Below are positions 4,116 through 53,888 of a stretch of DNA of 64,000 nt, piece by piece. The position numbers were made by a program, and so were the translations under genes. The notes beneath the pieces were generated by a model. The model saw only the letters and a list, made by a program, of their open reading frames with translations, searched no databases and had not been told where the DNA came from. Origin of the DNA: Anaeromyces robustus (lineage: Eukaryota; Neocallimastigomycota; Neocallimastigomycetes; Neocallimastigales; Neocallimastigaceae); contig MCFG01000032.1 of assembly GCA_002104895.1 (NCBI GenBank), positions 222,463-286,462 of the forward strand, given 5' to 3'. The first letter of the stretch is position 1. Each line of letters starts with the position of its first letter.

Positions 4116-6923
4116 TTAATGAAGAATTAATCGTTTAATTATATGATAAATATATCTACCCCAAAAATTATTACAATTACTATAAGAAATATCATATATA
4201 CTTTCACCTTTATCATTAACACTATAAATATCAGCATTATGTTTAATTAAATAATTTACTATAGGTATATTACTTGCTTTAATAGCATTAGCTAATATGG
4301 TATTACCATATCCATCACGTTGATTAATATCTAAAAGATTATCAATTAAAATTTTTAATATATCTAACTTATTATTATGAATAATTTGTTGTAAAACAAA
4401 ACTTGTGATATGTCTTATATTATATTGTAATAATGATTTAAATTCTTTTGAATTTATTAATTTATCGCAATAACTAACTTTTAATAAATCAGCGTAAAGT
4501 ATATCATCCTTAAAATCAAGATCAATTCCACTTTCTATTAAATAATTAACAATTTCCATTTCACCTTCCTTAAGAGCATACCATAATAAAGTAGACATTT
4601 CACCACCAATATTAACATTTATATTTGCACCATTTTGAATTAATAATTTCATCATAGGTAACGATTTAGATTGTAATGCAAATTCTAAAGGTGATTTAAA
4701 ATCAATTTTATTAATAAAATTAACATTAGCACCATATTTAATTAATAAATTTGTTAAAGGTATTGAATTTTCTTGTATAGAATATATTAATGGCGAATAA
4801 CAATCATCTCGATAAAAATTAATACGAGATCCCTTTTTTAATACTGTTTCCATCATAGCTATTTTATCCTCTAATGAAAAAAGTGAACTTTTTATAATAG
4901 TCATTAATAAAGATTCCTTTTTATGATTCATTAAATTTAAATCAATATTTTCTTGATTCACTAAACAATAAAATATATCTTTATTCCCTATATAAATTGA
5001 AATTTCTAAAGCATAATGATATTCTGATCCATGATTATTAGATACATAATTAACATCAACACCAAGATTAATTAAATCATTTATAGTATTTATATCTTCT
5101 TTAAGAATTGCATAATAAAGTAATGTATTACCATATCCATCTTTTTCATTGATATCAAATTTTTTAAGTAACAATTTAAAAATATTTTGATTCTGAATAA
5201 AATAAGAAAAAATTAATGCAGTAAATTTATGCTTAAATCTAAAAGAATTATCCAATAAATCTTTATTATTTCTATTTCTATTTAAATAATTAAACAAGGT
5301 TTGATCATCCTCTGTAATTTTATCATTTTCATTCTTAAATGGGAAAACGATTATACGAACATTTTCTTTATCATTTTGACAAATAGCTTTAATAAGTGAA
5401 GATGGATAATCTTGATAATTTGCCTTTATACGAGAACGCGAATAATCACTACAAGCATCATCTTCCTTAAATATTAATTTTTGTTTTAATAAATACTGTA
5501 TAAATCGATATTTTTTATCAGAAAGGGATAAAGATAATAATGATATACCGTGTCGATTATTATCTCTTATTATTGTATTTACATTACCCCCATGTTCAAT
5601 TAAATATTTAAAAATTCTAAGATTATTAGTATCCATTGCTATAACTATTGGATATTCCCCATTTTTATCTTTACCATTTATATCAAATTTTCGACGCAGT
5701 TCTTTATCTTCTATTAAATATTTAATTTTTCTAAAATCATTTATTTTAATTAAAGAATTTAATAATAATATATAATAGGATGAATTAGTATCTTTTATAA
5801 AAGACAGGTCTAATGGATAGCTTTCTTTATCTTTTAATGAAAATAAATTTTTATTAAATACAACTTCAATAAGAAATTTCAAAGTATCTAAATAACAATG
5901 ACCATTAATATTTTCATTTGTTTTTGAAGATGAATAAGTACGGTTCATGCGACTTGCTTCCAAAAGAATTTTTTCAAAATTAATAGCTTTTTTAAAATCA
6001 TTTAAATTATGATTTAATAAAGATTGTACAAGAAATTCCATCACCGCCTTCCCATTATAAACACGACAAGCTTGAATTAAAACATTATTAATAGATAAAG
6101 AATTAAAATCAAATGATACATTATTTACAATTTTTTTTACAAGTGAATAATTGTTATTTAATACAGCTTTTTCTAGTATACGATAACGAGATATTCTATC
6201 TGATATTTTATTACTACTTTCATAATCAAAAAGAATATTTAGGACTTCGGAATTAACTCTATGATGAGTTTTTTGATAAACTTCATCACTAATTTCAATT
6301 TTACTTTTTTCTTTTTCTATTTTTTCTCGTATAATATTATTAGATAAAGGAATTCTATTTTTATAAATAGATAAAAAATTTAATATAAATATATTATCAT
6401 AAATATAATGTTTAAAGAGAGTTTCTAATAAATCAACTCGGTTATTATATGCAAATTTTGTAATTAAAGATGAAGTGATATATTTCTTTTCAAAGCCTCT
6501 TTTCAAAATATATTTTAATTGAACTTTAGAAAAATCCTTAATTTTCTTTATAAAACAGCAATAATCTACTAAATTTACACGACAATCAAAATCATTTATA
6601 CAATAATTAACAGAAGCACCATTCTTAATTAATAAATCTGCTATCATAAATTTATTTTTTATAATAGCTGTAAACAAAGGAACTTGACTGGAATGATATA
6701 CAAAATTAAATAGTGTGTAATTGAAAGTATCATATTGACATTCTTGAATAATATATTTCACAACATCATAACAGTTGCAATATTCAATTACATATAATAC
6801 TATATCAAAAGTTTTATTACTTAAGTTTTTAATAATTACATTATTTTGTTCAATATAATCTTTTACTTCTTCGACTGTTTTAGCACCTCGAATTATAGTT
6901 AACAAATCGTCAATTTTAAACAT
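4116..6923 (-). CDS. Ankyrin-repeat protein, 935 aa, intronless
   Basis: A single open frame of 935 aa. Ankyrin repeats are plain in the C-terminal half: units with the pattern (N/S)PLxxAIxxxxxxIxxLLIxxGAxVN, such as SPLIYSIQENSIPLTNLLIK followed by YGANVNF, and SPLEFALQSKSLPMMKLLIQ followed by NGANINV. One clear repeat lies near residues 82-108, others around 415-500, and an almost continuous array runs from about 590 to 920. Between them are degenerate helical units. There is no signal peptide, membrane segment or C-terminal effector domain. Ankyrin arrays are protein-binding scaffolds, so the partner and role cannot be told. The start is the first ATG of the frame. The gene has no visible intron, unlike most multi-domain genes in this window, which fits a recently duplicated or expanded family. 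No relative lies in the window to test that. Confidence 0.9.
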   Translation of the reverse strand: MFKIDDLLTIIRGAKTVEEVKDYIEQNNVIIKNLSNKTFDIVLYVIEYCNCYDVVKYIIQECQYDTFNYTLFNFVYHSSQVPLFTAIIKNKFMIADLLIKNGASVNYCINDFDCRVNLVDYCCFIKKIKDFSKVQLKYILKRGFEKKYITSSLITKFAYNNRVDLLETLFKHYIYDNIFILNFLSIYKNRIPLSNNIIREKIEKEKSKIEISDEVYQKTHHRVNSEVLNILFDYESSNKISDRISRYRILEKAVLNNNYSLVKKIVNNVSFDFNSLSINNVLIQACRVYNGKAVMEFLVQSLLNHNLNDFKKAINFEKILLEASRMNRTYSSSKTNENINGHCYLDTLKFLIEVVFNKNLFSLKDKESYPLDLSFIKDTNSSYYILLLNSLIKINDFRKIKYLIEDKELRRKFDINGKDKNGEYPIVIAMDTNNLRIFKYLIEHGGNVNTIIRDNNRHGISLLSLSLSDKKYRFIQYLLKQKLIFKEDDACSDYSRSRIKANYQDYPSSLIKAICQNDKENVRIIVFPFKNENDKITEDDQTLFNYLNRNRNNKDLLDNSFRFKHKFTALIFSYFIQNQNIFKLLLKKFDINEKDGYGNTLLYYAILKEDINTINDLINLGVDVNYVSNNHGSEYHYALEISIYIGNKDIFYCLVNQENIDLNLMNHKKESLLMTIIKSSLFSLEDKIAMMETVLKKGSRINFYRDDCYSPLIYSIQENSIPLTNLLIKYGANVNFINKIDFKSPLEFALQSKSLPMMKLLIQNGANINVNIGGEMSTLLWYALKEGEMEIVNYLIESGIDLDFKDDILYADLLKVSYCDKLINSKEFKSLLQYNIRHITSFVLQQIIHNNKLDILKILIDNLLDINQRDGYGNTILANAIKASNIPIVNYLIKHNADIYSVNDKGESIYDISYSNCNNFWGRYIYHIIKRLILH

Positions 6924-8256: not shown

Positions 8257-9039
8257 ATGACCAATTTAAAACAGGAGAAATTAGGAATTCTTGCTTCAGA
8301 ATTAGATTTAGAAAAAGTTCCTGATGTTCAATTACCAGAGCCAGCACCTGATGGTAGAATAAGAGTTTTTTCTGATAAAGGATATGCTACTGTTGGTCTT
8401 ATGGAAATATCACAAGAATTTGTAGAATATGCTTCAACATGTCCATTACCAGTATTAGATGTTGGAACAGCTTATGGAGAAACAGCAGTAGCAGTATTAA
8501 AAAAAGGTGGTTTTGTTATTGCTAATGATGTTGAACAAGATTCATTAAATTATATAGTAAAAAGAAAAGATATAACCGATGATGATAGAAAAAGGTTATA
8601 TTTAAAAAAAGGATTTGTTCCATTTGATATGGATTTTGAACCTGACTCATTAGGTGCTATTCATGCTAGTCGTGTTATGCATTTTTTCACTCCAAATGAA
8701 GTTAGAGCTTTTTTTGCTAAAGCAAAAGAATGGCTTGTTCGTGATGGTGTTATATTTTTAATTACTTCTTCTCCATATCATTGGTTTACACCAAAAGGAT
8801 TTGCCGAAGAATATGAAAAAAAATTTAAAGAAGGTGTTGAATTTCCTGGAGTAATAACAGATTTTTCTTATTTAGAAGATGAATTAAAAACTGGTGAATA
8901 TAATAATGCTATGGACCCTAAAATAATATATAGAGAAGCAGTTAAAAATGATTTTCTTATTAAAAAACTTGGATATGCAAAAGGAAGATATGATTATGAT
9001 TATACTTTTGCTGTCTTGGTTAATAGAAAAGAAGAATAA
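8257..9039 (+). CDS. Class I SAM-dependent methyltransferase
   Basis: 260 aa, a single exon starting at an ATG after a long A/T leader. Rossmann-fold motifs are clear. Motif I is VLDVGTAYG (residues 67-75). The acidic end of beta-2 is IANDVEQDS (about 88-96). Motif IV is LGAIHASRVMHFFTP (about 132-146). The following strand is VRDGVIFLITSSP (about 161-173). The length is normal for a stand-alone class I enzyme, and no substrate-recognition domain can be named. The overall layout (GYATxxxxx, then FVEYA, then PVLDVGxAYG, then ASRVxHFF) resembles small methyltransferases I know from intracellular bacteria such as Legionella relatives. With the absence of introns this suggests acquisition from bacteria, but that is inference. 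There is no signal peptide, so it is cytosolic. The substrate is unknown. Confidence 0.88.
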   Translation: MTNLKQEKLGILASELDLEKVPDVQLPEPAPDGRIRVFSDKGYATVGLMEISQEFVEYASTCPLPVLDVGTAYGETAVAVLKKGGFVIANDVEQDSLNYIVKRKDITDDDRKRLYLKKGFVPFDMDFEPDSLGAIHASRVMHFFTPNEVRAFFAKAKEWLVRDGVIFLITSSPYHWFTPKGFAEEYEKKFKEGVEFPGVITDFSYLEDELKTGEYNNAMDPKIIYREAVKNDFLIKKLGYAKGRYDYDYTFAVLVNRKEE

Positions 9040-13865: not shown

Positions 13866-14187
13866 ATGGTAGAACAATGGAGACCAAATGTTGCCTACGG
13901 TCCAGCCGGTACTAAGGTTGAATACGAAGGTACTGTTTACGAAGTTATCCAACCACACACTTCTCAAATGGGTTGGGAACCAACTCAAACCCCAGCTCTC
14001 TGGAGAGTTAGCCGTAACTCTTCTTCTTCCTCTGGTGGTCATCACTCATCATCTTCAAACAACCAATCTTCCTCAAACAACCAATCTTCATCTAACAACC
14101 AATCCTCATCTAACAACAACCAACAACAACAACAACAACAAACTCCAGTTATTAACCCATTCCAAGGTCAACAAAACATTGTCGACC

Positions 14188-14219
<32 letters not shown>

Positions 14220-14657
14220 CCAATTCCATACCAATGGAGAGCTTACACTGGTTCTGTTCCAAATGATGCTGTTACTATCTCTAACTCTCTTGGTAAGACC
14301 TTCGGTGTTGCCCGTGGTGGAATTGAAGGTGGTATTCACCCAGGTTACTTTGATGCTCGTAACCACAAGTGTTTCACTTCTTACGGTGGTAAGGAAGTTA
14401 TCTGTGAAAAGTTTGAAGTTTTAACTTGTGATCCAAACAGATACTACTGGGTTCAATGCAAAGATCCAAAGAACATCAACGGTAACCCAGTTATTGGTGG
14501 TAATGAAAAGGATGGTACACCACTTTACGTTGCTAAGATCAACCGTAATGGTGTTCCATACTTCGGTAAGACTTCTGCTAGTGCTAGCTGTGCTTACTTC
14601 GGTCTTGACCAAAAGGAACAAAAGGTTAACGAATTCGAAGTCTTATGCTACAAATAA
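13866..14657 (+). CDS. CBM5/12-like module plus two DM9 repeats
   Basis: 263 aa, one exon. Residues 4-48 form a type-3 chitin-binding module: W5, PNVAY, GTKVEYEGTVYEV, then W37 and LW46, the aromatic pattern of CBM5/12. Residues about 49-121 are a linker of Ser, Asn and Gln, including (SSSNNQ)n and two poly-Gln runs. Residues about 122-263 are two DM9 (DUF3421) repeats: W-x-x-Y-TGSVPNDAV, GVARGGIEGGIHPGYF and YGGKEV, then GTPLYVAKINRNGVPYFGKT. DM9 domains are known as mannose-binding lectin folds in animals, so the protein probably binds two kinds of glycan. There is no signal peptide, so it is either cytosolic or leaves by a non-classical route. Codons ending in C or G (AAG, TAC, AAC, GGT, CAA) dominate, unlike every other gene here, which is typical of very highly expressed genes in AT-rich genomes. 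An AAAATGG context supports the start. Confidence 0.88.
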
Positions 14658-14688
14658 ATTAATTGAACCTTTTTTTTTTTGAATTGAT

Positions 14689-14708
14689 AAAGGGACAAAT
14701 TGCCCTTT
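14689..14708 (+). other. Possible 3' UTR stem of the CBM-DM9 gene
   Basis: AAAGGG and CCCTTT face each other about 30 bases past the stop codon and are followed by A/T runs. It could be an mRNA 3' hairpin. The stem is only six base pairs. Confidence 0.3.
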
Positions 14709-15293
14709 AAAAAAATTATAATTATAAAATATCCAAATAATTGGACTTGTAATTGTAATTTTTTTTAAAAAATTTAAAAAATAATAATTTATTTTTAATA
14801 TGAAAAAAAAAAAATAAAACATTTGCAATTCAATTTTTTATATCTAAAATAAACCAATAGAAATATAAAAGTTTTTTTTAGAGAAATTATATGTTGGCAA
14901 AAAAATTGTAAAAGAAAAAAAAATAAGGATTTTAACCTTTTTTTTTTCTATTTTAAAAATTAATTTATCCTTCAATTTTTGTACAGAAATTAATAAAATC
15001 ATATAAATATAAAAATAATTTGCATTTATATAAATAAAATAAAATTAAAAAAAAAAAAAAAAAGTTTTTTCTCTATATGTAATTAAATGTTTTAGTCTAT
15101 AAAAAAAATTTTTTTTATTTGCTTTTTTATTTAAATTGATATGTTTAATTATTTTTATGAATATTAAAAATAATTTATTTTACAGTGTTTTATAGTTTTA
15201 TCTTAAATCGATTAAAGCAAAAACTTATAAAATGAATAATTTTAAAAAAATTCAAAAATTATTGAAACCTTTCCTGAATATAAGAAAGGTTTC
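14709..15293. other. Non-coding stretch with A/T runs, no gene seen
   Basis: This covers the likely 3' UTR remainder of the CBM-DM9 gene and A/T tracts up to the LINE remnant. Nothing else is recognised. Confidence 0.5.
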
Positions 15294-17999: not shown

Positions 18000-19780
18000 G
18001 TCATTCGACCTAGTAGACTTATTTAAATTAGAAAATAATCCAGTTGGAAACTTAACAATCACCTGGTAGTAATAATATAAATCTCTATTTATATTGAGTC
18101 TGTATCAAAAAATAATACAAAATGGTAATATCTTAATTCTTTATAGGGAAGAAAGTGATATTACCTATGTATTTTCAGAATAACTGTCTAAGTTATTTTC
18201 CAGTAGATTGTAAATTTAAACACTAAAATTGTTTTATAAAACACAGTTTTATTATTAAGTTTAAAATATAAAATTTATTTATTAAAATTTTATTAAATTT
18301 ATTATTATTTATTAAATAGTAGTTTTATTCTTAACTAAACTATTTTATGTTGATTATATATTTTAATTTAGTAATTTATTCTAATAATTATTAATTCATT
18401 ATATTTATGACTAAGCTATTATTAAAAATAGTAGTAAAGAATTAATTTACATAAAAATATTTACATGTATATTTTTCTTTAAAATTAAACTATTTACAAT
18501 AATAAATAAAATAATACAAGTATTTATAAAAATATAAATAAAATAATTAAAAATTATTGAATAAAATAAGTAAAAATGTATAAAAATAATAATAAAATAA
18601 ATAATAAAAATAAATAATAAAAATAAATAATATTATTAATAAAATTATAAAGATAAACTGTTTATTTATTTATAAAGTAAATAAAATTAGTTGTTATTTC
18701 TAATTTAGAAATGTTTAAGTGTAAAGAATATTTAAAAAGTATTTAGAAGGTATTTTAAAAGTGTTTTTAGAAACTATTTTCGAGTCATATTATTTAATTA
18801 AAATATTTTAGAATCGTTTATTATTTTTATAATATTAATTATAAATTGTTTATAATTTATATAAATTTAATATTCAATAATATTTTTAAGAATTGATTTA
18901 GTTTAAGATAATAATGATAAAGATATTGTTTTAAAATATAATTTAATAATCTTATTATTTTTTTATTAATGTTATTAATTATTTTAAATGATAATTCAAT
19001 ATAATATTAAAATTTATTAATTATTTGAAGTTTAGAAAATAATTATAATTAAAGTAAATTAATAATAAATTATAGAGAATAATAATAAATAAAACTAATT
19101 AGAATTTTTAAAAGTTAATATTATAATTAAAAGTACTATAAAAATTTCATTATTTATCAAAATGATACGTATTTTTTATAAAGTATCAATTTTGTGTGAG
19201 TTAGCAAGATTATTTATTAATAAAATAATATATTCTATTAAGAAGATAAATAGAATTTACACTCGAGTATTAAATATTAAATGTATAAAGATTATTTATT
19301 TTATAGTCGTATTTTATTTATTTATTTATTTATTATAAAAGTCGTATTATTATTTAAATATCGTATATAAAATTATTAATATTAATTAGATATAATCCTT
19401 TAATATATCTAACTATTATAAAAAAATTTATAACCAATTTCCTAAATATTATTAAATCCTATAAGTTTTATTTTAGTTTTCCTAACTAATTCCTATAAAA
19501 CTAATTATTAATAATAAAAGAACCCCCTTTCTACTTAATTTTATATATTTCTTATATAATTGTTTTTACTTATTATTATTTTAATCTTATTGGTTATAAA
19601 TAATTAAATTTTTGTTTAATTTACATATTACATTTAATGTAATTTATTACACTATTATTATTTATTATTTATTATTCCTAATAATTAACTATTTATAAAA
19701 ATATTTGTGTTATTTTTTTTTATTTTAAATCCATAAAATTTCTCTTTTTATTTGAATCCTGTACCAAAAAAATGTAAGAT

Positions 19781-19852
19781 AGCAGCGTAGCGCAGTGGAA
19801 GCGTGGTGGGCTCATAACCCACAGGTCGTATGATCGAAACATACCGCTGCTA
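19781..19852 (+). tRNA. Initiator tRNA-Met (CAT)
   Basis: A full cloverleaf. Acceptor AGCAGCG pairs with CGCTGCT (19781-19787 with 19845-19851). The D stem is GCGC/GCGT. The anticodon stem GTGGG/CCCAC holds loop CTCATAA, giving CAT. The T stem is GTATG/CATAC with loop ATCGAAA, and the discriminator is A. The AxCGAAA T-loop, the G-C-rich anticodon stem and the A1-T72 pair mark it as the eukaryotic initiator rather than the elongator. There is no intron. Internal A box TAGCGCAGTGG is present. T-runs begin about 13 bases downstream and would end Pol III transcription. Confidence 0.96.
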
Positions 19853-19861
19853 TTAATATTT

Positions 19862-21290: not shown

Positions 21291-24200
21291 TTATTTATAC
21301 TGCATTTCAAACATATCATCACTTTGATTCCCTTCTTCTTCTTCTTCTTCTTCTTCTTTTTCTTCTTCATTAATATTATCATCCATATTAACGTTATTAT
21401 TATTATCATTTATTCTAACTATATTAATAGTAATATCTCTTTTATTATTTTTTTTTTCAAAACTTTTATCATTATTATTATTATCATCATCATCATCATC
21501 ATCATCATCGTTATTATTATAGTTATCATAATTTTTGGATATATCATGGTTAGGGCGACGTAGATAATTATTACGACCATTATCACCTTTTAAATTACTA
21601 CCGTTATTATTATTACCTTCATTATTATAGCCATTATTATTATTACCATTATTATTACTACCATCATTATTATTTCCTTGATTATTATGGCCATTATTAT
21701 TGTCACCATTATTATTATCACCATAATTATTATCACCAATATTATTATTTCCATCATTGTTATTACCGTAGTTATTATCGCCATTGTTATTGTTACCATT
21801 ATTATGATTACCATTATTATCATCACCAGTATTATTATCTCCATTATTATTTTTACCTTCATTATTATCACCATTGTTACCATTTCCATTATTATTATTA
21901 CCTTCGTTATTGTTACCATCATTATTATCACCTATATTATTATCACCTATATTATTATTACCGCGATTATTGTTTCCACGATTATTGTTTCCACGATTAT
22001 TATTTCCTGTATTATTACTTCCTCTATTATTATAGCCATCATTGTTATTTCCGGTATTATTATCACCAATATTATTGTTACCATCATTATTATTACCCTT
22101 GTTATTATTACCTTTATTATTGTTGCCTATGTTATTAGCACCTATATTATTAGTACCTATATTTCCATTATCATCTTTCATATCTTTAATAATTACATTT
22201 TCATTTTGATTTTGTATTTGTAATTTTTCTTTGATAGTATTATTCTCATTTATAGATTGATTATCGTTATTACTATTATAATCATCATAACCTTTATTGA
22301 CATCACTATTGCTATTATTATCATCATTTTTGGTATCATTATTGTTATTATCATCATCATTATTGGTATCATTATTGGTATCATCATCATCATTATTGGT
22401 ATCATTATTGTTATCATCATCATTATTGATATCATTATTGTCATTACTCAATGATTCATTTTGAATATCTTTATCATTATTATCATTATCATTTCCATCA
22501 CTACTTAATAATTCATTTTGAATATCTTTATCATTATTTTTGGATAATTCATTTTGATCATGATCATTCGTTACCTTATTCCTCTTTCTTGATATTGGTT
22601 CTTTACTATAATAATAATTTTCTTCATTATTTTTAGATAATTTACCTTTATCATTTATTCTTTTACTTTTTCTTTTTAATAATACTTTTTTATTTCTTAA
22701 AATAATACTATCATTATCACTAATATTTTCTTCTTCATCATTCTCCTTATCCTTATTCTTATTCTTATTATCTTTATCACTATCATCATCATTATTATCA
22801 TTATTTATGTCAGAGGAATCTTCATTTTTATCAGTATCACTGTCATCACTGTTTTCCTCATTGTTATTTGTTTCTTCTTTATATAAATATTTTTTCCTTT
22901 TTCTAGTTCTTTTTTTATATTCTTTTTCCTTTTCTGATTTATCCTTATATGTTTTTGCTTTATTTTGTTTTTCTTTAATTGACTTTTCCTTCATTGGTTC
23001 TTCATCAATTGTTTTCTTATTATCATTTTTTAAATTAATTTTTATAATAGCACGATTAGGATCATATATATTTTTGGATATATTATTTTTATCATTATTA
23101 TTTTCATTTTTTGAAAAGTAAATATTGTTTTTAATTTCTTCATTACTTTCTTCTAAATGATTACTATCATCATCTTCAACATTTAAAATTTCAATTTCTT
23201 TTGATGCTGAATATGATTTATTACTATTACGTGTTGTTCTTCTTTTATTTGGTGAATAATTTAAAAAATTATCTGAACTTTCATTTTCATCATCAATAAC
23301 TTCATAATAATAATAATTACTATGTGAATTTTTTCTTTTTTTCTTATTATGATTACTACTTGATTCATTCATCTCTCGTTTTTTATTGTATATTTCATTA
23401 TTGGTTCTTTTCTAATTTTTTTTTTTTTTTAAAATATTAATATAAATTGAAAAATATAAACATATAAAGTTTATAATAATTAATAATTATAAATAACAGT
23501 AGTAATTCTTATTATATATATAAATAAAAAATAAAAATAAAAATAAAAATAAAAATAAAAAAGACTATTTTTTTAATTATTGATATATGAAATTTTAAGT
23601 AATGTAATAATATATTTACTTTTTTTAATTCTTCAATTGTCAAAGAAGGAAGTAGGTTATCTAAACTATCATATAATTTTTTTTCATCTTCATTTTCCGT
23701 ATCTAAATTTCTCATAAATCTTAATAGTTCTTCTTTTTTATTAATGTGCTATTAATTATTATAATGTTATGAAAATAATATATATTGTATAATTATTTAG
23801 AATTTTACATTTATTATTTTTAATAAATTATATATATATATTGTGACAAGATAAAAATTAAAATATTAAATTATAATTTACAATTCAAATAAAAATAAAA
23901 AAAAGAAAAAAAAATAAGATTTAATATATGAATTTCAATAAAACTTACAGTTCTCCATTTTCCATTCAATATCCTATAAAGACGTGAACTATTCGTACTA
24001 TAATAAACATTTCCCTATATTATTAATTTTATGAATGGACAAAAAAATTTAATTATAACAATAATAATTATAATATTAACCGTAACAACAACAACATTAT
24101 TATTATTATTATCATTATTATTATTATTATCATTATTATTATTATTATTATTATTAGTTATTAGTTATTAGTTATTAGTTATTAGTTATTAGTTATTAGT

Positions 24201-48143: not shown

Positions 48144-51100
48144 ATGGAAACTCCATATGTACAAAACACAATGTCTAATCAAAACATTAGTAAAGAAAAC
48201 TTTAAAAGTAATGAAGTTATAGTTGAAAATGAAAACTATATCAGTAGTAATAAATGTGAATATGATGGTTATACTTCAAATATAAGTGCAAATGAAGATG
48301 GTTATTATCAATCTTCATGTGATGATATCATTAATAATGAAGAAAATTTTGAAATTTTAAAAAATGAAGAAAAAATTTCAAACCCTATTACTACTGATGA
48401 TCATCAAAATCAAAATTCAACTAAATCTCAAAATGAAAAGATGGAAAAATGTTCATGTACTGCCGAGCCCCTTTTAACATATTCAAATAATAATCATAAT
48501 AAAAGTGTTAACGATGCTAAAAATAGTACAACAACAATGATCAAATTAAATGATAATTCTACTCCAAAAGTTATTAAAAAGAAAAAGAGTAAGAAATTAT
48601 CAAAGTTCCCAAAACATAAACAATCTTATATTAAGATTTATTTAAGATTTAAAGATAAGTTAAATACGAAAACTGAATCTATTAAGAATCAAAAGAAGAA
48701 AAATAATAAAAAACTTGATTCATCTATTCGTGATGTTTCATCAAGTCCTATCAGTTTTAATCATGAAGAAGAAAAACTTTATGATGATGAATTTATGATA
48801 AATAATACACCTATGAATACTGTGAGCAAAAATTCAATGGAAAAAATGAATCATAATAAAGATGATGATAAAGATAAATCAAATTACAATTATAAAATTA
48901 CATTTGTAAAAGAATCACCATCAAGTTCAACATCTTTAACATCAACATCATCTATTGAAAAAAATAGTATTACTAAACCAGATGAAACTAAATTCATATC
49001 GAATATTAATAATTCTTCTGATGAAATTATTGAAATGGATATAAGAGAAATTACAGTTGTTAATGCCGAAGGTGAAACTATTCTTATACCAACAAGAAAA
49101 AGAACTGAAAGTCTACCTCGTCATGTTAGTAATACAAAACGAAAAACGTCAGTTCAATCGGATACAACAATTACTCCAAAAAAATTGAAAAAGGAAAAAA
49201 GTATTATAAAAACCGTAAAGAATTTCCTTTATTCTAAAAAAGATGCTCAAGATAAAGAATATAATATAATCGTTCCAAAAGTTATTGATGAAAATGAAAA
49301 GGAAAATGTAAAGGAAAATGTAAAGGAAAATGTAAAGGAAAATGAAAATGTAAAGGAGAATGAAAATGCAAAGGAAAATGAAAATGTAAAGGAAAATGAA
49401 AATGTGAATGAAAATGAAAATGTAAAGGAAAATGATAATGAAAATGTTTTTTATGAAGATATGAATAAAAATGTTACTTCAATTAATACAGAACATACTA
49501 AAGTTGAAGTTATTCCTGTTGAAATTAAGGAAAAAGAAGATGATGAAAAAGAAAAAAATCAATCCACTCCAATGGAAATAAATGAAAATATTGGTGTTGT
49601 TTGTGAAATTAAAACTCCAGAAATAATTAATAATGTTGAAGAAAATGTAACTATTATTCCAGTTATAGAAAATAAAAAAGTAGATATTCCAAATATTAAA
49701 AAAAATGTAGATGAAAATAATAGTTATGTTGATCTTTCAGAAAAGAAAAAAATTAATGATAAGAATACTACACCAAATGATCAAGATAATGATATGATTG
49801 GGGCCGGTATTTCAATGGTTAAACCTTTCCATCTAGATAATGAAATGTCAACACATTTAATAGAAGAAACTACTACCAAAAATATTGACCTTCCTATCAT
49901 GAATGAAAATGTCAAATCTACTACTCCTATGGAAGATAATATACTTAATAAACCAATACTTGATGATATTGAAAAGCCACTTCCTGTTATTCCATTAACT
50001 GAAATGTCTAGTAAATAAAAAAAAATTCTTTTTTTTTTTTTTTTAAAAATTATATAAATATATAGTTATAATATAATATATATCATTTACAAATAATAAA
50101 TATTAATAGATTTATTATAAATATAAATTTTCATAATACTATATACATATATTATCGAATTATTTATTTATAATATATATTTATTTTATTTTATTTTATT
50201 TTATTTTATTTTATTTTATTTTATTTTATTTTATTTTATTTATTATATATTTATTTATTTTATATTTTATTTATATATATATATTTTTAGAAGAAGATAT
50301 AGAAAAAAGAAAATTAAAATATAATACAAAACCTTTAAAAACTACATTAAAGAAAAGTATTTATGCTATTAGATATTTCAGAAAACCAAAAGAGGATGTT
50401 CCACAATATGTTATTGTAGAAGATTTTGAAAAATTCAAAGAAAATACTCAAAAATGTATTGATGAAAAATCTAGAAATATTGAAATCAATACAACAAATA
50501 TGAATGAAAGTAATGAAAAATTTAAAGAAAGTGTTAGAGAAAGTTTTATTGAAGTTAAAGAAGATTTAATTCATTTAAATAATGAATATATTAATGAAAA
50601 TAAAAAATTAAAAGAAGAAATCATAGAATTACAAAATCGTATAGTTAATATAGAAGAAGAAAAAGAAAAAGAATTAGATCAACTTAGAACTGAAATAGCT
50701 GAAGAAATTATAAAATTACAAGATTTAATGAAACTTATAGAAGAACAAAAGGAAAATGAAATGGAACAACTTCGAAATGAAATTTCAGAACTTCATGAAA
50801 GAGATGATGAAATGGAACAACTTAGAAATGAAATTTCAGAACTTCATCAAAAGGAAGATAATTATCAAGATGTTATAGAACATCATTTATTAAATATTAA
50901 TACTTCTTTAGTTAAATTAAAGGAAGAATCTTTTGTAATGAGAGAAGAATTATATCATGAAATTCAACAAATCAAAGATCATGAAATTATGGATATTGAT
51001 CCTGATGATATTGTTAGAAAATCTGATATTGAAAATGTTTCAAAACAATTAGTGAAAAGTAATGTTCAATGGAATGAACTTTCACATAATGTTCAAAATT

Positions 51101-51527
51101 TACCTATTCAAATAAAGAAAGATATAGAGGATCAATTAACTGTTTATGATCAATGTCAAAATGAAAAGAATAAACAATTTGAAGATTATATTACTGATTC
51201 TAAGAAGAATCAAACAAAATTAGAAAGATGTATAAAGGAATTAATTAAATTACAAAAGGCAAATGAAAATAGTATTGAAACTAAAACTAAAAGTATTAAT
51301 GATACAATAACTCTTCAAAGTCAACAAATTAAAGAACTTGAAGAAACCAAAGATCAAGTATGGTCACAAAATGAAAAATTGACTATGATTGGAGATAGAG
51401 TAGACCATTATTGTACTAATGATTATCTTGATACTGTCATTGAATTAGAAGATCTTAGAAAAATTACTAATCGTACTACAGAAGAATTATTTAACCTACA
51501 AAAATTGTAAAATTTATATCTATCTAT

Positions 51528-51566
<39 letters not shown>

Positions 51567-52253
51567 TATTAAGCTTTATATTATAAATATAATAATAATA
51601 GTAATAATAATAATAATAACTTTATTTTCAAATATATTTATTTATCTATTTATTAGAAATTTATACTGCAAGAATCTTGATCGACTTCCAAAAAGAATAT
51701 TTTCTTTAGAAAATCTTAATGAATTGTAAAATTTTTTATATTAATAATAATAATAACAATTTTTCTTTATATACTTAATATATATTTTTAAAATTTAATT
51801 AAAAAATCGTAATATTAAATTAATATTTATATTTATATATTATATTATATATTATTTTTATTTAAAAAAAAAAAAAAAAATAGATGGTTAGGACGTAATA
51901 ATTTAAATAATATTAATGATAAAATAGGAAATCTTAAAAATCTTAAAAGATTAAGTATTGCAGATAATAATTTAAGTCAATTACCTGTAGGTATTAAAAA
52001 TTTGAAGAATCTTACTCATTTATACTTATATAAGAATAAATTAAAGGAACTTCCACCCGAAATTGGACAACTTGATAATTTAATTCATTTAGATGTTGAA
52101 AGTAATAAATTAACAAAACTTCCAGTAGAACTTAAAAATTTATCTAAATTAGAAAATTTAGATATTGAAAATAATTTATTTAATGAATTCCCTTCTATCA
52201 TATTTGAATTAAAGAATTTAGTTAAATTGTATTGTATTAATAATAATAACAAT

Positions 52254-52339
<86 letters not shown>

Positions 52340-53888
52340 GCAAATATATATATATATATTTAATAATTGTTAAAAAATTTAAATTGATAATAATAATAAT
52401 AATAATTAATATTTATATTCTAATTTTTATACAGAAATTTAAGTTCCAATAAATTTTTCTTTATTCCAAGAGAATTAGAGAATTTAACCCATTTGAAACA
52501 ACTGTAAGTAATAATAATATATAATAATAGTAATAATAATTTTAAGATATAATATGAAAATAAGCAAAAAAAAAAAAAACACATAAACAAACAAACAAAC
52601 AAACAAATATCTATATATATATTTAATATTATATTGTTATTAACTATTTTTTTTTTTTTTTTTTAAAAAAAAATAGTAATTTAAAGGATAACTATCTTCG
52701 TTCATTCCCATACAGTATACTTAAATTTACCAATTTAGAAGAATTGTAATTTTATTTTTTATTTTTATTTTATAATTTTTTTATTTTTATTTTATAATTT
52801 ATCAATTAATTATAAATATAATTAATTAATAAATTATATATATGAGTATATATTAAAAAAAATTTTTTTTTCTTAATAATTCAATTATGTATATATTGTA
52901 TTGTATTAATTTTTACAGAGATTTATCCAATAATTTATTCAAAGATATACCATCAGAAATTAGATATTTAGATAAACTTAAGACTTTGTAAGTTTTATTA
53001 TTATTATTATATTTAATTATATATCTAATTTATTTTAATTTTTATCTCTTTATTTTCTTATTATTATTAATAATATAATAATTTTATTATTTTAATAATA
53101 TGATATATTTTATAGAGTTCTTGCTAATGTTAGAATTGAAGAAATAATTCCAGAAATTGGTTATCTTAAAGATTTGAAAGTTCTGTAAGTTTATATATAT
53201 ATTATATATTATATATATATCATTAATATTAGTTTTAAATATTATATTTATATTATTAAATAATATAAATAATATTTTATTATTACATAGTAATTTATTA
53301 ATTTTTATTTTATAATAATTTATTATTTTTAAATTTTTTTTTTTTTTAAAAAAAAAAAAAATAGTAATGTTAGTAATTGTGGTATTAGAATGTTACCAAC
53401 CTGCCTTAAGAATTTACAAAATTTGGAAGAAATGTAATTTTATATATAATATATAAATATTAATTTATTTTTTATTTTTTTTATTTTATTTTATTTATTT
53501 TTTTTTTTTTTAATTTATTTTTTATACTTTTTTTTTTTTTTTAATATATATTTTTAATTTATTAATAAATAATAATAATATATATACATAATTTTAATTA
53601 AAAATAATATAGAAATTTGGTTAATAATGATGGTATAAGTATGTTACCAGAGTTCTTTAGAAACTTTAAAAATCTTAAAAAAGTATTTATGTAAGTAATT
53701 TTATATATATATATCTACATATATTACATATATTACAATTATAATTATTTATATATTTTTAATAATTAAAATTAAATTGTATATATAGGAGTAGAAATGT
53801 AGTATATAAGAATGGTGTAGAATATCCAAGATACCAAGGTGCTGTATACAATGATTTATTAAAGAAAAATATTATTAGAACAGAATAA
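48144..53888 (+). CDS. Coiled-coil / leucine-rich-repeat protein, 11 exons
   Basis: Exons: 48144-50010, 50291-51506, 51657-51725, 51884-52228, 52435-52503, 52677-52745, 52919-52987, 53116-53184, 53365-53433, 53613-53690, 53789-53888; 1339 aa. Residues 1-622 are low complexity (Asn/Lys/Glu/Ser) with basic patches and KENVKENE-type tandem units (DNA 49291-49447). Residues about 624-1027 are a long charged coiled coil with a near-exact repeat of EMEQLRNEISELH. Residues about 1028-1300 hold twelve LRRs of mostly 23 residues with the LxLxxNxLxxLPxxIxxLxxL pattern of the SHOC2-like type. A tail without LRRs ends KKNIIRTE. There is no signal peptide or membrane segment, so it is intracellular; a scaffold role is inferred. 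Introns 2-10 are all phase 2 and fall at the same LRR position. Intron 4 has an atypical donor (GTATTG) before an AAT run. Confidence 0.85.
49291..49447 (+). repeat. Coding KENVKENE-type tandem repeat
   Basis: The hexamer/dodecamer AAGGAAAATGTA and AAGGAAAATGAAAATGTA recur through about 150 bases of exon 1 of the LRR gene, encoding alternating KENV and KENENV units. Confidence 0.88.
50180..50242. repeat. (TTTTA)n pentanucleotide repeat in intron 1
   Basis: About twelve pure copies of ATTTT/TTTTA in the first intron (50011-50290) of the LRR gene. Confidence 0.9.
52243..52340. repeat. (AAT)n microsatellite in LRR-gene intron 4
   Basis: About thirty AAT units immediately after the donor of intron 4 (52229-52434). 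If the intron were retained, they would add a poly-Asn run to the LRR protein before a stop. Confidence 0.9.

What the first reader, a model, noticed from the sequence alone, without database searches (positions are those of the whole stretch)
51657..53690. One exon per leucine-rich repeat, all introns in the same phase and position
After the coiled coil the gene has exons of 69, 345 (exactly five times 69), 69, 69, 69, 69, 69 and 78 bases. Nine introns in a row are phase 2 and interrupt the same codon of the LRR consensus. The 345-base exon reads as five repeats without introns, so either introns were lost there or the array grew by both exon duplication and intronless repeat duplication. Exon-per-LRR layouts are known for some animal receptors, but I know of none in fungi described as such.
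Basis: partly seen in the sequence, partly recalled or inferred. Interest (0 to 1): 0.72.

Follow-up and report, generated by a model that had tools for sequence, protein, structure and literature searches.

The report
One exon per leucine-rich repeat
In what looks like a gut fungus, a gene for a repeat-built protein is cut by introns so that almost every exon carries one repeat, cut at the same point of the repeat as in rice receptor genes; the layout is known from plants, animals, brown algae and ciliates, and I found no report of it in fungi.

Summary
Spliced at the stated borders, the gene gives one open frame with LRR-region exons of 69, 345, 69, 69, 69, 69, 69 and 78 bases, and nine introns in a row are phase 2. 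Correction: 8 of 9 split the first Leu (L4) of LxxLxLxxN; the last lies two codons on. The layout recurs in this genome: locus C496 (plant-type repeats) has 9 of 9 introns at L4 phase 2; C267, C568, C97 and C112 have 2-4 each. Of 47 supported introns in the fetched LRR stretches (two stretches left out), 19 sit there, in four loci; 28 are scattered. Other LRR genes have long intron-free repeat blocks. The position equals that published for rice LRR kinases; brown-algal ROCO genes, gonadotrophin receptors and Tetrahymena LRR genes also use phase-2 LRR exons. Best reading: the array grew by copying symmetric phase-2 exons; the five-repeat exon reflects intron loss or internal duplication. It is old: single-repeat exons share about 47% of bases, and intron homology is faint. 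A new, apparently fungal, member of a known kind. No transcripts or second species could be searched.

The parts
48144..50010 (+). probable first coding exon, disordered-looking N-terminal region (inferred join by a phase-1 intron)
   Evidence: frame-consistent GTAAAT...TTTTTAG intron 50011-50290; ORF; not proven
50291..51506 (+). coiled-coil exon ending in a partial LRR cap (LFNLQK|L)
   Evidence: coiled coil judged by eye
51657..51725 (+). 69-base exon, one LRR
51884..52228 (+). 345-base exon, five LRRs without introns
52435..52503 (+). 69-base exon, one LRR
52677..52745 (+). 69-base exon, one LRR
52919..52987 (+). 69-base exon, one LRR
53116..53184 (+). 69-base exon, one LRR
53365..53433 (+). 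69-base exon, one LRR
53613..53690 (+). 78-base exon, last irregular LRR (25 whole codons plus the split ones); by my alignment its end lies two codons past L4
53789..53888 (+). last exon, C-terminal tail and stop codon
51507..51656 (+). intron 2, phase 2, splits L4 (150 bases)
51726..51883 (+). intron 3, phase 2, splits L4 (158); 3' end is a run of 17 A before TAG
52229..52434 (+). intron 4, phase 2, splits L4 (206); holds a TAA-type microsatellite; the only one of the nine whose retention gives no immediate stop
52504..52676 (+). intron 5, phase 2, splits L4 (173); T-run/A-run/TAG 3' end
52746..52918 (+). intron 6, phase 2, splits L4 (173)
52988..53115 (+). intron 7, phase 2, splits L4 (128)
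53185..53364 (+). intron 8, phase 2, splits L4 (180); T-run/A-run/TAG 3' end
53434..53612 (+). intron 9, phase 2, splits an Ile in the L4 column (179)
53691..53788 (+). intron 10, phase 2, splits a Met codon two codons past L4 (98)

Best explanation
The gene encodes a coiled-coil plus LRR protein of the SHOC2/LRRD1 repeat type, probably an intracellular binding scaffold (function inferred from the repeat class only). Its LRR array is modular: each 69-base exon (and the 345-base one) runs from the third base of one L4 codon to the second base of the next, so these exons are symmetric (phase 2 at both ends) and can be copied, lost or skipped without breaking frame or repeat register. The array most likely grew by copying such exons with their introns, long ago. 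The 345-base exon is a block where introns were lost or where intronless repeats multiplied. The same module boundary is used in several plant-type LRR genes of this genome, where in two related loci it also joins two repeat types, as exon shuffling predicts. Shown: borders, phase, position, recurrence, in-frame skipping on paper. Inferred: splicing, exon duplication, protein function.
For: Exon model, phases and split codons. Enrichment of GT and AG exactly at the phase-2 L4 place. Genome count: 19 of 47 supported introns at L4 phase 2, confined to 4 loci; at stricter intron penalties 15 of 37 and 15 of 35. With a 24-residue plant-type profile over all 34 stretches: C496 9 of 9 modelled introns, window 7 of 7, C267 4 of 6 (one of the four doubtful), C568 2 of 2, C97 2 of 2 (C354 is its copy), C112 2 of 5, and none in the other stretches (same result as on 10 of the 34). 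C97 and C568, which are close paralogs, pass from an intron-free LPxxI array to a GxIP repeat across an L4 phase-2 intron. Independent insertion into leucine codons is unlikely (p = 7.6e-7), and 279 sites in the 858-base LRR coding part carry a T|[ATG] junction context, so context does not explain the choice. Three of 9 introns share an A-run + TAG 3' end against 0 of 70 introns modelled in other LRR loci (Fisher p = 0.001, a test made after seeing the pattern). Skipping any one of exons 3-10 keeps the frame, with only the terminal stop. The spliced protein matches solved LRRD1 and SHOC2 over spans that cross splice junctions.
Against: Exon copies show no recent duplication: single-repeat exons average 47% nt and 28% aa identity, at most 58% nt. 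Only 4 of 36 intron pairs are more alike than all but at most one of 100 shuffles, and by reading the sequence these rest on simple repeats and A/T runs. Intron-free repeat blocks show that LRR arrays also grow here without introns. No transcript data. No second species could be searched. In C112 the change of repeat type is not at an L4 phase-2 intron.
Confidence: 0.7

Rival explanations
1. Introns were inserted independently into an already existing intronless LRR array, each time at the same codon, because the repeated DNA offered the same insertion or splice context.
For: Similar intron-free repeat arrays are common in this genome (C384, C321, C252, C519, C190). Exon copies show no recent duplication and introns little homology.
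Against: The local context (T|[ATG], leucine codon) occurs at many other places in the repeats: 279 sites, and 61 leucine codons of which 11 are L4. In other LRR genes of the genome introns fall all round the repeat: 28 of 47 are elsewhere, one of them a phase-0 intron directly before the L4 codon (C258).
Confidence: 0.13
2. The L4 phase-2 introns are inherited from a very old eukaryotic LRR exon module shared with plants, brown algae and animals; this gene keeps them while most fungal LRR genes lost them. (This concerns age, and is compatible with exon duplication.)
For: Identical position and phase in rice LRR kinases; phase-2 LRR exons in brown algae and gonadotrophin receptors. Present here in two LRR classes, LPxxI and GxIP.
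Against: No phylogeny links the modules; 23-24-residue repeats are too short to date. Other LRR genes of this genome have scattered introns instead. Exact positions in animals and brown algae were not checked by me at residue level.
Confidence: 0.25
3. Exon-split plant-type LRR genes were taken up with their introns from a plant or protist, and seeded the module in this genome.
For: C496 has plant-type GxIP repeats, mostly 72-base exons, the rice intron position and best matches among solved structures to plant receptor kinases.
Against: GxIP repeats are also found in bacteria (Acidobacteria MAG, 43% identity in the best segment, query 1-228). Base composition is the fungal one (C496 stretch GC 0.161). 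The window gene is LPxxI type, not GxIP.
Confidence: 0.08
4. The gene model is wrong (pseudogene or mis-set borders).
For: No RNA evidence; the first coding exon join is inferred.
Against: GT and AG stand at the same repeat coordinate at eight of nine introns, the frame is open across 11 exons, and the repeat consensus is kept.
Confidence: 0.03

Closest known systems
Rice LRR receptor kinases with exon-split LRR domains (PMC3050792; passages seen)
   Same: [quoted passage not shown] the authors propose exon duplication, shuffling and intron loss.
   Different: Plant receptor kinases, LRR exons mostly 72 bases; here 69-base LPxxI repeats, coiled coil, no kinase in the Pfam scan.
Brown-algal ROCO genes (PMC11378527; passages seen; Zambounis 2012 not held, known through passages of PMC4104024)
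   Same: One LRR per exon, all phase 2, tandem arrays.
   Different: 72-base exons, ROC-COR GTPase domain, reported shuffling and alternative splicing; none of these shown here.
Tetrahymena 90-bp-exon LRR genes (PMC6564038; passages seen)
   Same: Arrays of equal-length LRR exons with extreme phase-2 bias.
   Different: 90-base exons, tens of thousands of exons; the leucine positions given in a figure legend suggest another cut point in the repeat (my inference).
Vertebrate gonadotrophin receptors and human NLR/LRR genes (PMC11378527 and PMC6642158; passages seen)
   Same: LRR-sized frame-preserving exons; phase 2 in gonadotrophin receptors.
   Different: Animal receptors, other repeat classes; exact codon not compared here.
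Tuber melanosporum NLR genes (one sentence in PMC10197012, passage seen)
   Same: A fungal case of sensor domains varied by splicing (3-bp microexons).
   Different: Not described there as LRRs or as one exon per repeat; original paper not seen.
SHOC2 / LRRD1 class LRR proteins (PDB sequence matches)
   Same: 23-residue LPxxI repeats; best matches LRRD1 (E 4.9e-80) and SHOC2 (E 1.7e-67).
   Different: Coiled-coil N-terminus; no orthology claimed.

Membership tests
Exon-per-LRR modular genes (rice LRR-kinase / ROCO / gonadotrophin receptor layout) | Exon length equals one repeat or a multiple | tested here: met
   Six exons of 69, one of 345 = 5 x 69; the last LRR exon (78) deviates
Exon-per-LRR modular genes (rice LRR-kinase / ROCO / gonadotrophin receptor layout) | Symmetric phase-2 introns | tested here: met
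   9 of 9 introns after the coiled coil
Exon-per-LRR modular genes (rice LRR-kinase / ROCO / gonadotrophin receptor layout) | Split codon is the first Leu of xxLxLxx (stated for rice) | tested here: met
   8 of 9 (7 Leu, 1 Ile); the ninth is two codons off
Exon-per-LRR modular genes (rice LRR-kinase / ROCO / gonadotrophin receptor layout) | Traceable exon duplication (similar exons or introns) | tested here: inconclusive
   Exon identity about 47% nt; few intron similarities, in simple sequence
Exon-per-LRR modular genes (rice LRR-kinase / ROCO / gonadotrophin receptor layout) | Alternative splicing of LRR exons (reported for brown algae and human NLRs) | not testable with these tools
   No transcripts; skipping is frame-preserving on paper
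Plant LRR receptor kinase | Kinase domain and plant-type GxIP repeats | tested here: not met
   Pfam on the spliced protein finds only LRR families at E up to 0.001; repeats are LPxxI
Tetrahymena 90-bp-exon LRR genes | Exons of exactly 90 bases | tested here: not met
   69-base unit
Fungal LRR adenylate cyclase | Cyclase domain | tested here: not met
   No cyclase family in the Pfam scan
SHOC2/LRRD1-type LRR proteins | 23-residue LPxxI repeats matching solved members | tested here: met
   phmmer; orthology not tested

The most novel reading that the evidence does not exclude
The L4 phase-2 LRR exon is one ancient genetic module of eukaryotes, kept in plants, brown algae, animals and an early-branching fungus, and in this fungus it still serves as the joint at which LRR modules of two classes are put together, in an intracellular protein and in secreted, possibly chitin-binding, LRR proteins.
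Probability: 0.2. Interest if true: 0.72.

Novelty: new member of a known kind. Interest (0 to 1): 0.5.

Why it matters
It seems to carry the exon-per-repeat design into fungi, at the same codon and phase as in rice, and in one genome beside intron-free repeat arrays and beside LRR genes with scattered introns. That gives three growth modes of one repeat family in one organism and makes the question of common origin versus convergence of phase-2 LRR exons testable by sampling early fungi. It would also give these proteins a frame-safe way to vary repeat number.

Tried and rejected
Searches for relatives outside the genome gave little (they scan for six short peptide patterns, so distant relatives are missed): the viral collection returned 4 loci, which by eye are phage contigs with three LRR units each, in 69-base steps; I did not look for introns there. 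Bacterial and archaeal genomes gave none for the window LRR domain. For C496 they gave one Acidobacteria MAG and one weak match (29%), and the viral collection none. Intron-to-intron similarity as proof of exon copying was rejected: the top pairs share microsatellites or A/T runs. A three-exon block duplication, suggested by shared 3' ends of introns 5 and 8, got no support from exon identity (the 78-base exon was not compared). Origin of the 345-base exon from the canonical intron-free arrays was not supported (profile score p 0.26). The modelled path across C384 ran through intergenic DNA; C384, and C354 as a copy of C97, were left out, and C246, C354 and C384 out of the 70. An early chance figure (1.7e-7) used 8 introns and 12 L4 sites; the corrected one is 7.6e-7. 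In one search I had typed the first residue of 5 of the 20 seed repeats wrongly; one search repeats it with the letters taken from the DNA, over all 34 stretches, with the same L4 phase-2 counts. Structure prediction was not used: the rule admits only proteins read letter for letter from the DNA, and the spliced protein is not.

Full report
It lies in an unnamed assembly of 70.2 Mb in 769 contigs, G000:C246:222463-286462.

Check of the observation. I placed every border by reading the sequence and testing frame and phase. Nine introns after the coiled coil are phase 2. Eight split L4, the first Leu of LxxLxLxxN's LxL; the last splits a Met codon two codons downstream by my alignment, because the 78-base exon is 69 plus 9. 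The part upstream of 50291 joins an ORF starting at 48144 by a phase-1 intron; this join is plausible and unproven. If kept in the transcript, eight of the nine phase-2 introns give a stop codon at once, which follows simply from phase 2 plus a GTAA donor.

Is it more than chance? From LRR searches of the assembly and fetched stretches I merged 34 regions, 182 kb. A profile found 341 repeat units. GT at the phase-2 L4 place marks 21 of 82 repeat ends without a next repeat, against 1 of 259 internal ends; AG 10 of 82 against 2 of 259; the window gene itself supplies 7 of the 21 and 7 of the 10. I then fitted a cyclic LRR profile with introns allowed at any phase and position. With at least 8 bits of repeat on both sides, 47 introns remained, C354 and C384 left out: 19 at L4 phase 2, in C246 (7), C496 (8), C267 (2) and C112 (2); 28 elsewhere, of which 27 in 13 loci with no L4 phase-2 intron and 1 in C112; one of the 28, in C258, lies directly before the L4 codon (phase 0). 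With stricter penalties the figures are 15 of 37 and 15 of 35. Some of the scattered introns may be mis-modelled. One search misses the first and last introns of the window array because they lie at its edge.

Recurrence. With a 24-residue profile C496 is a full exon-per-repeat gene: nine introns, all L4 phase 2, with one exon of two repeats. C267 has four such introns of six modelled (one of the four doubtful), followed by an intron-free run of repeats; C568 and C97 have two of two, C112 two of five. A rerun with corrected seeds over all 34 stretches gave the same counts, and no L4 phase-2 intron in any other stretch. In C97 and C568, which are close paralogs and so not independent, an intron-free LPxxI array is followed, across an L4 phase-2 intron, by a GxIP repeat. 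So the module boundary can join two LRR classes, which is what exon shuffling would leave; in C112 the change of class is not at such an intron. Three structural classes therefore coexist: intron-free 69-base repeat arrays (for example C321, C519, C190; some such genes have introns outside the repeats), genes with scattered introns (for example C46, C83, C258), and modular genes.

How the array arose. Repeated insertion into leucine codons is disfavoured (11 L4 of 61 leucines; p = 7.6e-7), and the junction context is common (279 T|[ATG] sites in 858 bases). Copying of symmetric exons is the simplest account. Direct traces are faint: single-repeat exons average 47% nt identity; 4 of 36 intron pairs exceed all but at most one of 100 shuffles but rest on simple sequence; 3 of 9 introns end in A9-A17 TAG against 0 of 70 modelled introns of other LRR loci (p = 0.001, tested after the pattern was seen). 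The five repeats of the 345-base exon are slightly more alike than random fives (nt p 0.019, aa p 0.050), not at third positions (p 0.36), and do not fit the intron-free-array profile better than the other repeats (p 0.26). Intron loss and internal duplication both remain possible.

What the protein is. At E up to 0.001 Pfam finds only LRR families in the 1339-residue product. By sequence the LRR domain is nearest to LRRD1 and SHOC2 among solved structures. With no signal peptide apparent by eye it is probably an intracellular scaffold; that function is inferred.

Comparison with what is known. [quoted passage not shown] Brassica rapa LRR kinases are reported to have mostly phase-2 introns (PMC4654520, one passage). 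Brown-algal ROCO genes have 72-base phase-2 LRR exons; the same paper notes phase 2 in gonadotrophin receptors (PMC11378527, passages). Human LRR genes show exon modularity with use in alternative splicing (PMC6642158, passages). Tetrahymena has tens of thousands of 90-base exons flanked by phase-2 introns; its authors knew of no comparable uniformity in another eukaryote (PMC6564038, passages). A survey of fungi reported LRR receptors to be almost absent (PMC2939053, passages). A review mentions splicing of 3-bp microexons in NLR genes of the fungus Tuber melanosporum (PMC10197012, passage), the nearest fungal relative of the idea that I met. None of the listings of my ten paper searches showed a fungal exon-per-LRR gene; the library holds open-access papers only and several listings were cut (for example 20 of 48 papers, 15 of 29, 15 of 80), so this is no proof of absence.

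Verdict. A well-defined gene architecture, a new and apparently fungal member of a known kind, with the added value that one genome shows three LRR gene architectures side by side.

Noticed in passing
G000 C496:7000-10000 (L072), C568:155383-158859 (L003, L005, L054), C97:405-3578 (L025; copy in C354, L026/L066): Secreted-looking (by eye) LRR proteins followed by cysteine-rich hevein-like segments and Thr-rich tails; for the C496 piece Pfam gives Chitin_bind_1 at E 3.2e-4, below the curated cut-off: possible LRR plus chitin-binding proteins.
   Followed up: partly
G000 C412 (L065), ORF of 1638 codons from about 4338 in the locus: Signal-like start, GxIP LRRs, a Cys-rich cap, one apparent transmembrane helix and a very long low-complexity tail (by eye): looks like an LRR receptor-like protein, of interest because LRR receptors are reported almost absent in fungi.
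   Followed up: no
G000 C690 (L015, L021, L060), ORF of 701 codons: What reads like a solute-binding-protein domain fused to GxIP LRRs and a C-terminal hydrophobic end, in one ORF (domains named by eye).
   Followed up: no
G000 C384:27946-38313: Three tandem, similar LRR gene copies made of intron-free 69-base repeats, each with a modelled 54-57-base intron at the same place after the array; one repeat has an in-frame stop.
   Followed up: no
window 13866-14657 +: Protein with CBM5/12 and a DM9 repeat, mostly in the most GC-rich kilobase of the window (14001-15000: 0.315).
   Followed up: no
window 8257-9039 +: 260-residue methyltransferase in one ORF in a GC-richer patch (0.245); possibly of bacterial origin, untested.
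   Followed up: no
window 4116-6923 -: 935-residue ankyrin-repeat protein in one ORF: a long repeat gene without exon modularity, a contrast to the LRR gene.
   Followed up: no
window 21291-23372 -: Low-complexity protein with long runs of GNNN-type repeats.
   Followed up: no
window 19780-19853 +: A single tRNA-Met gene.
   Followed up: no
window about 50180-50240: ATTTT-type pentanucleotide run inside the inferred first intron.
   Followed up: no
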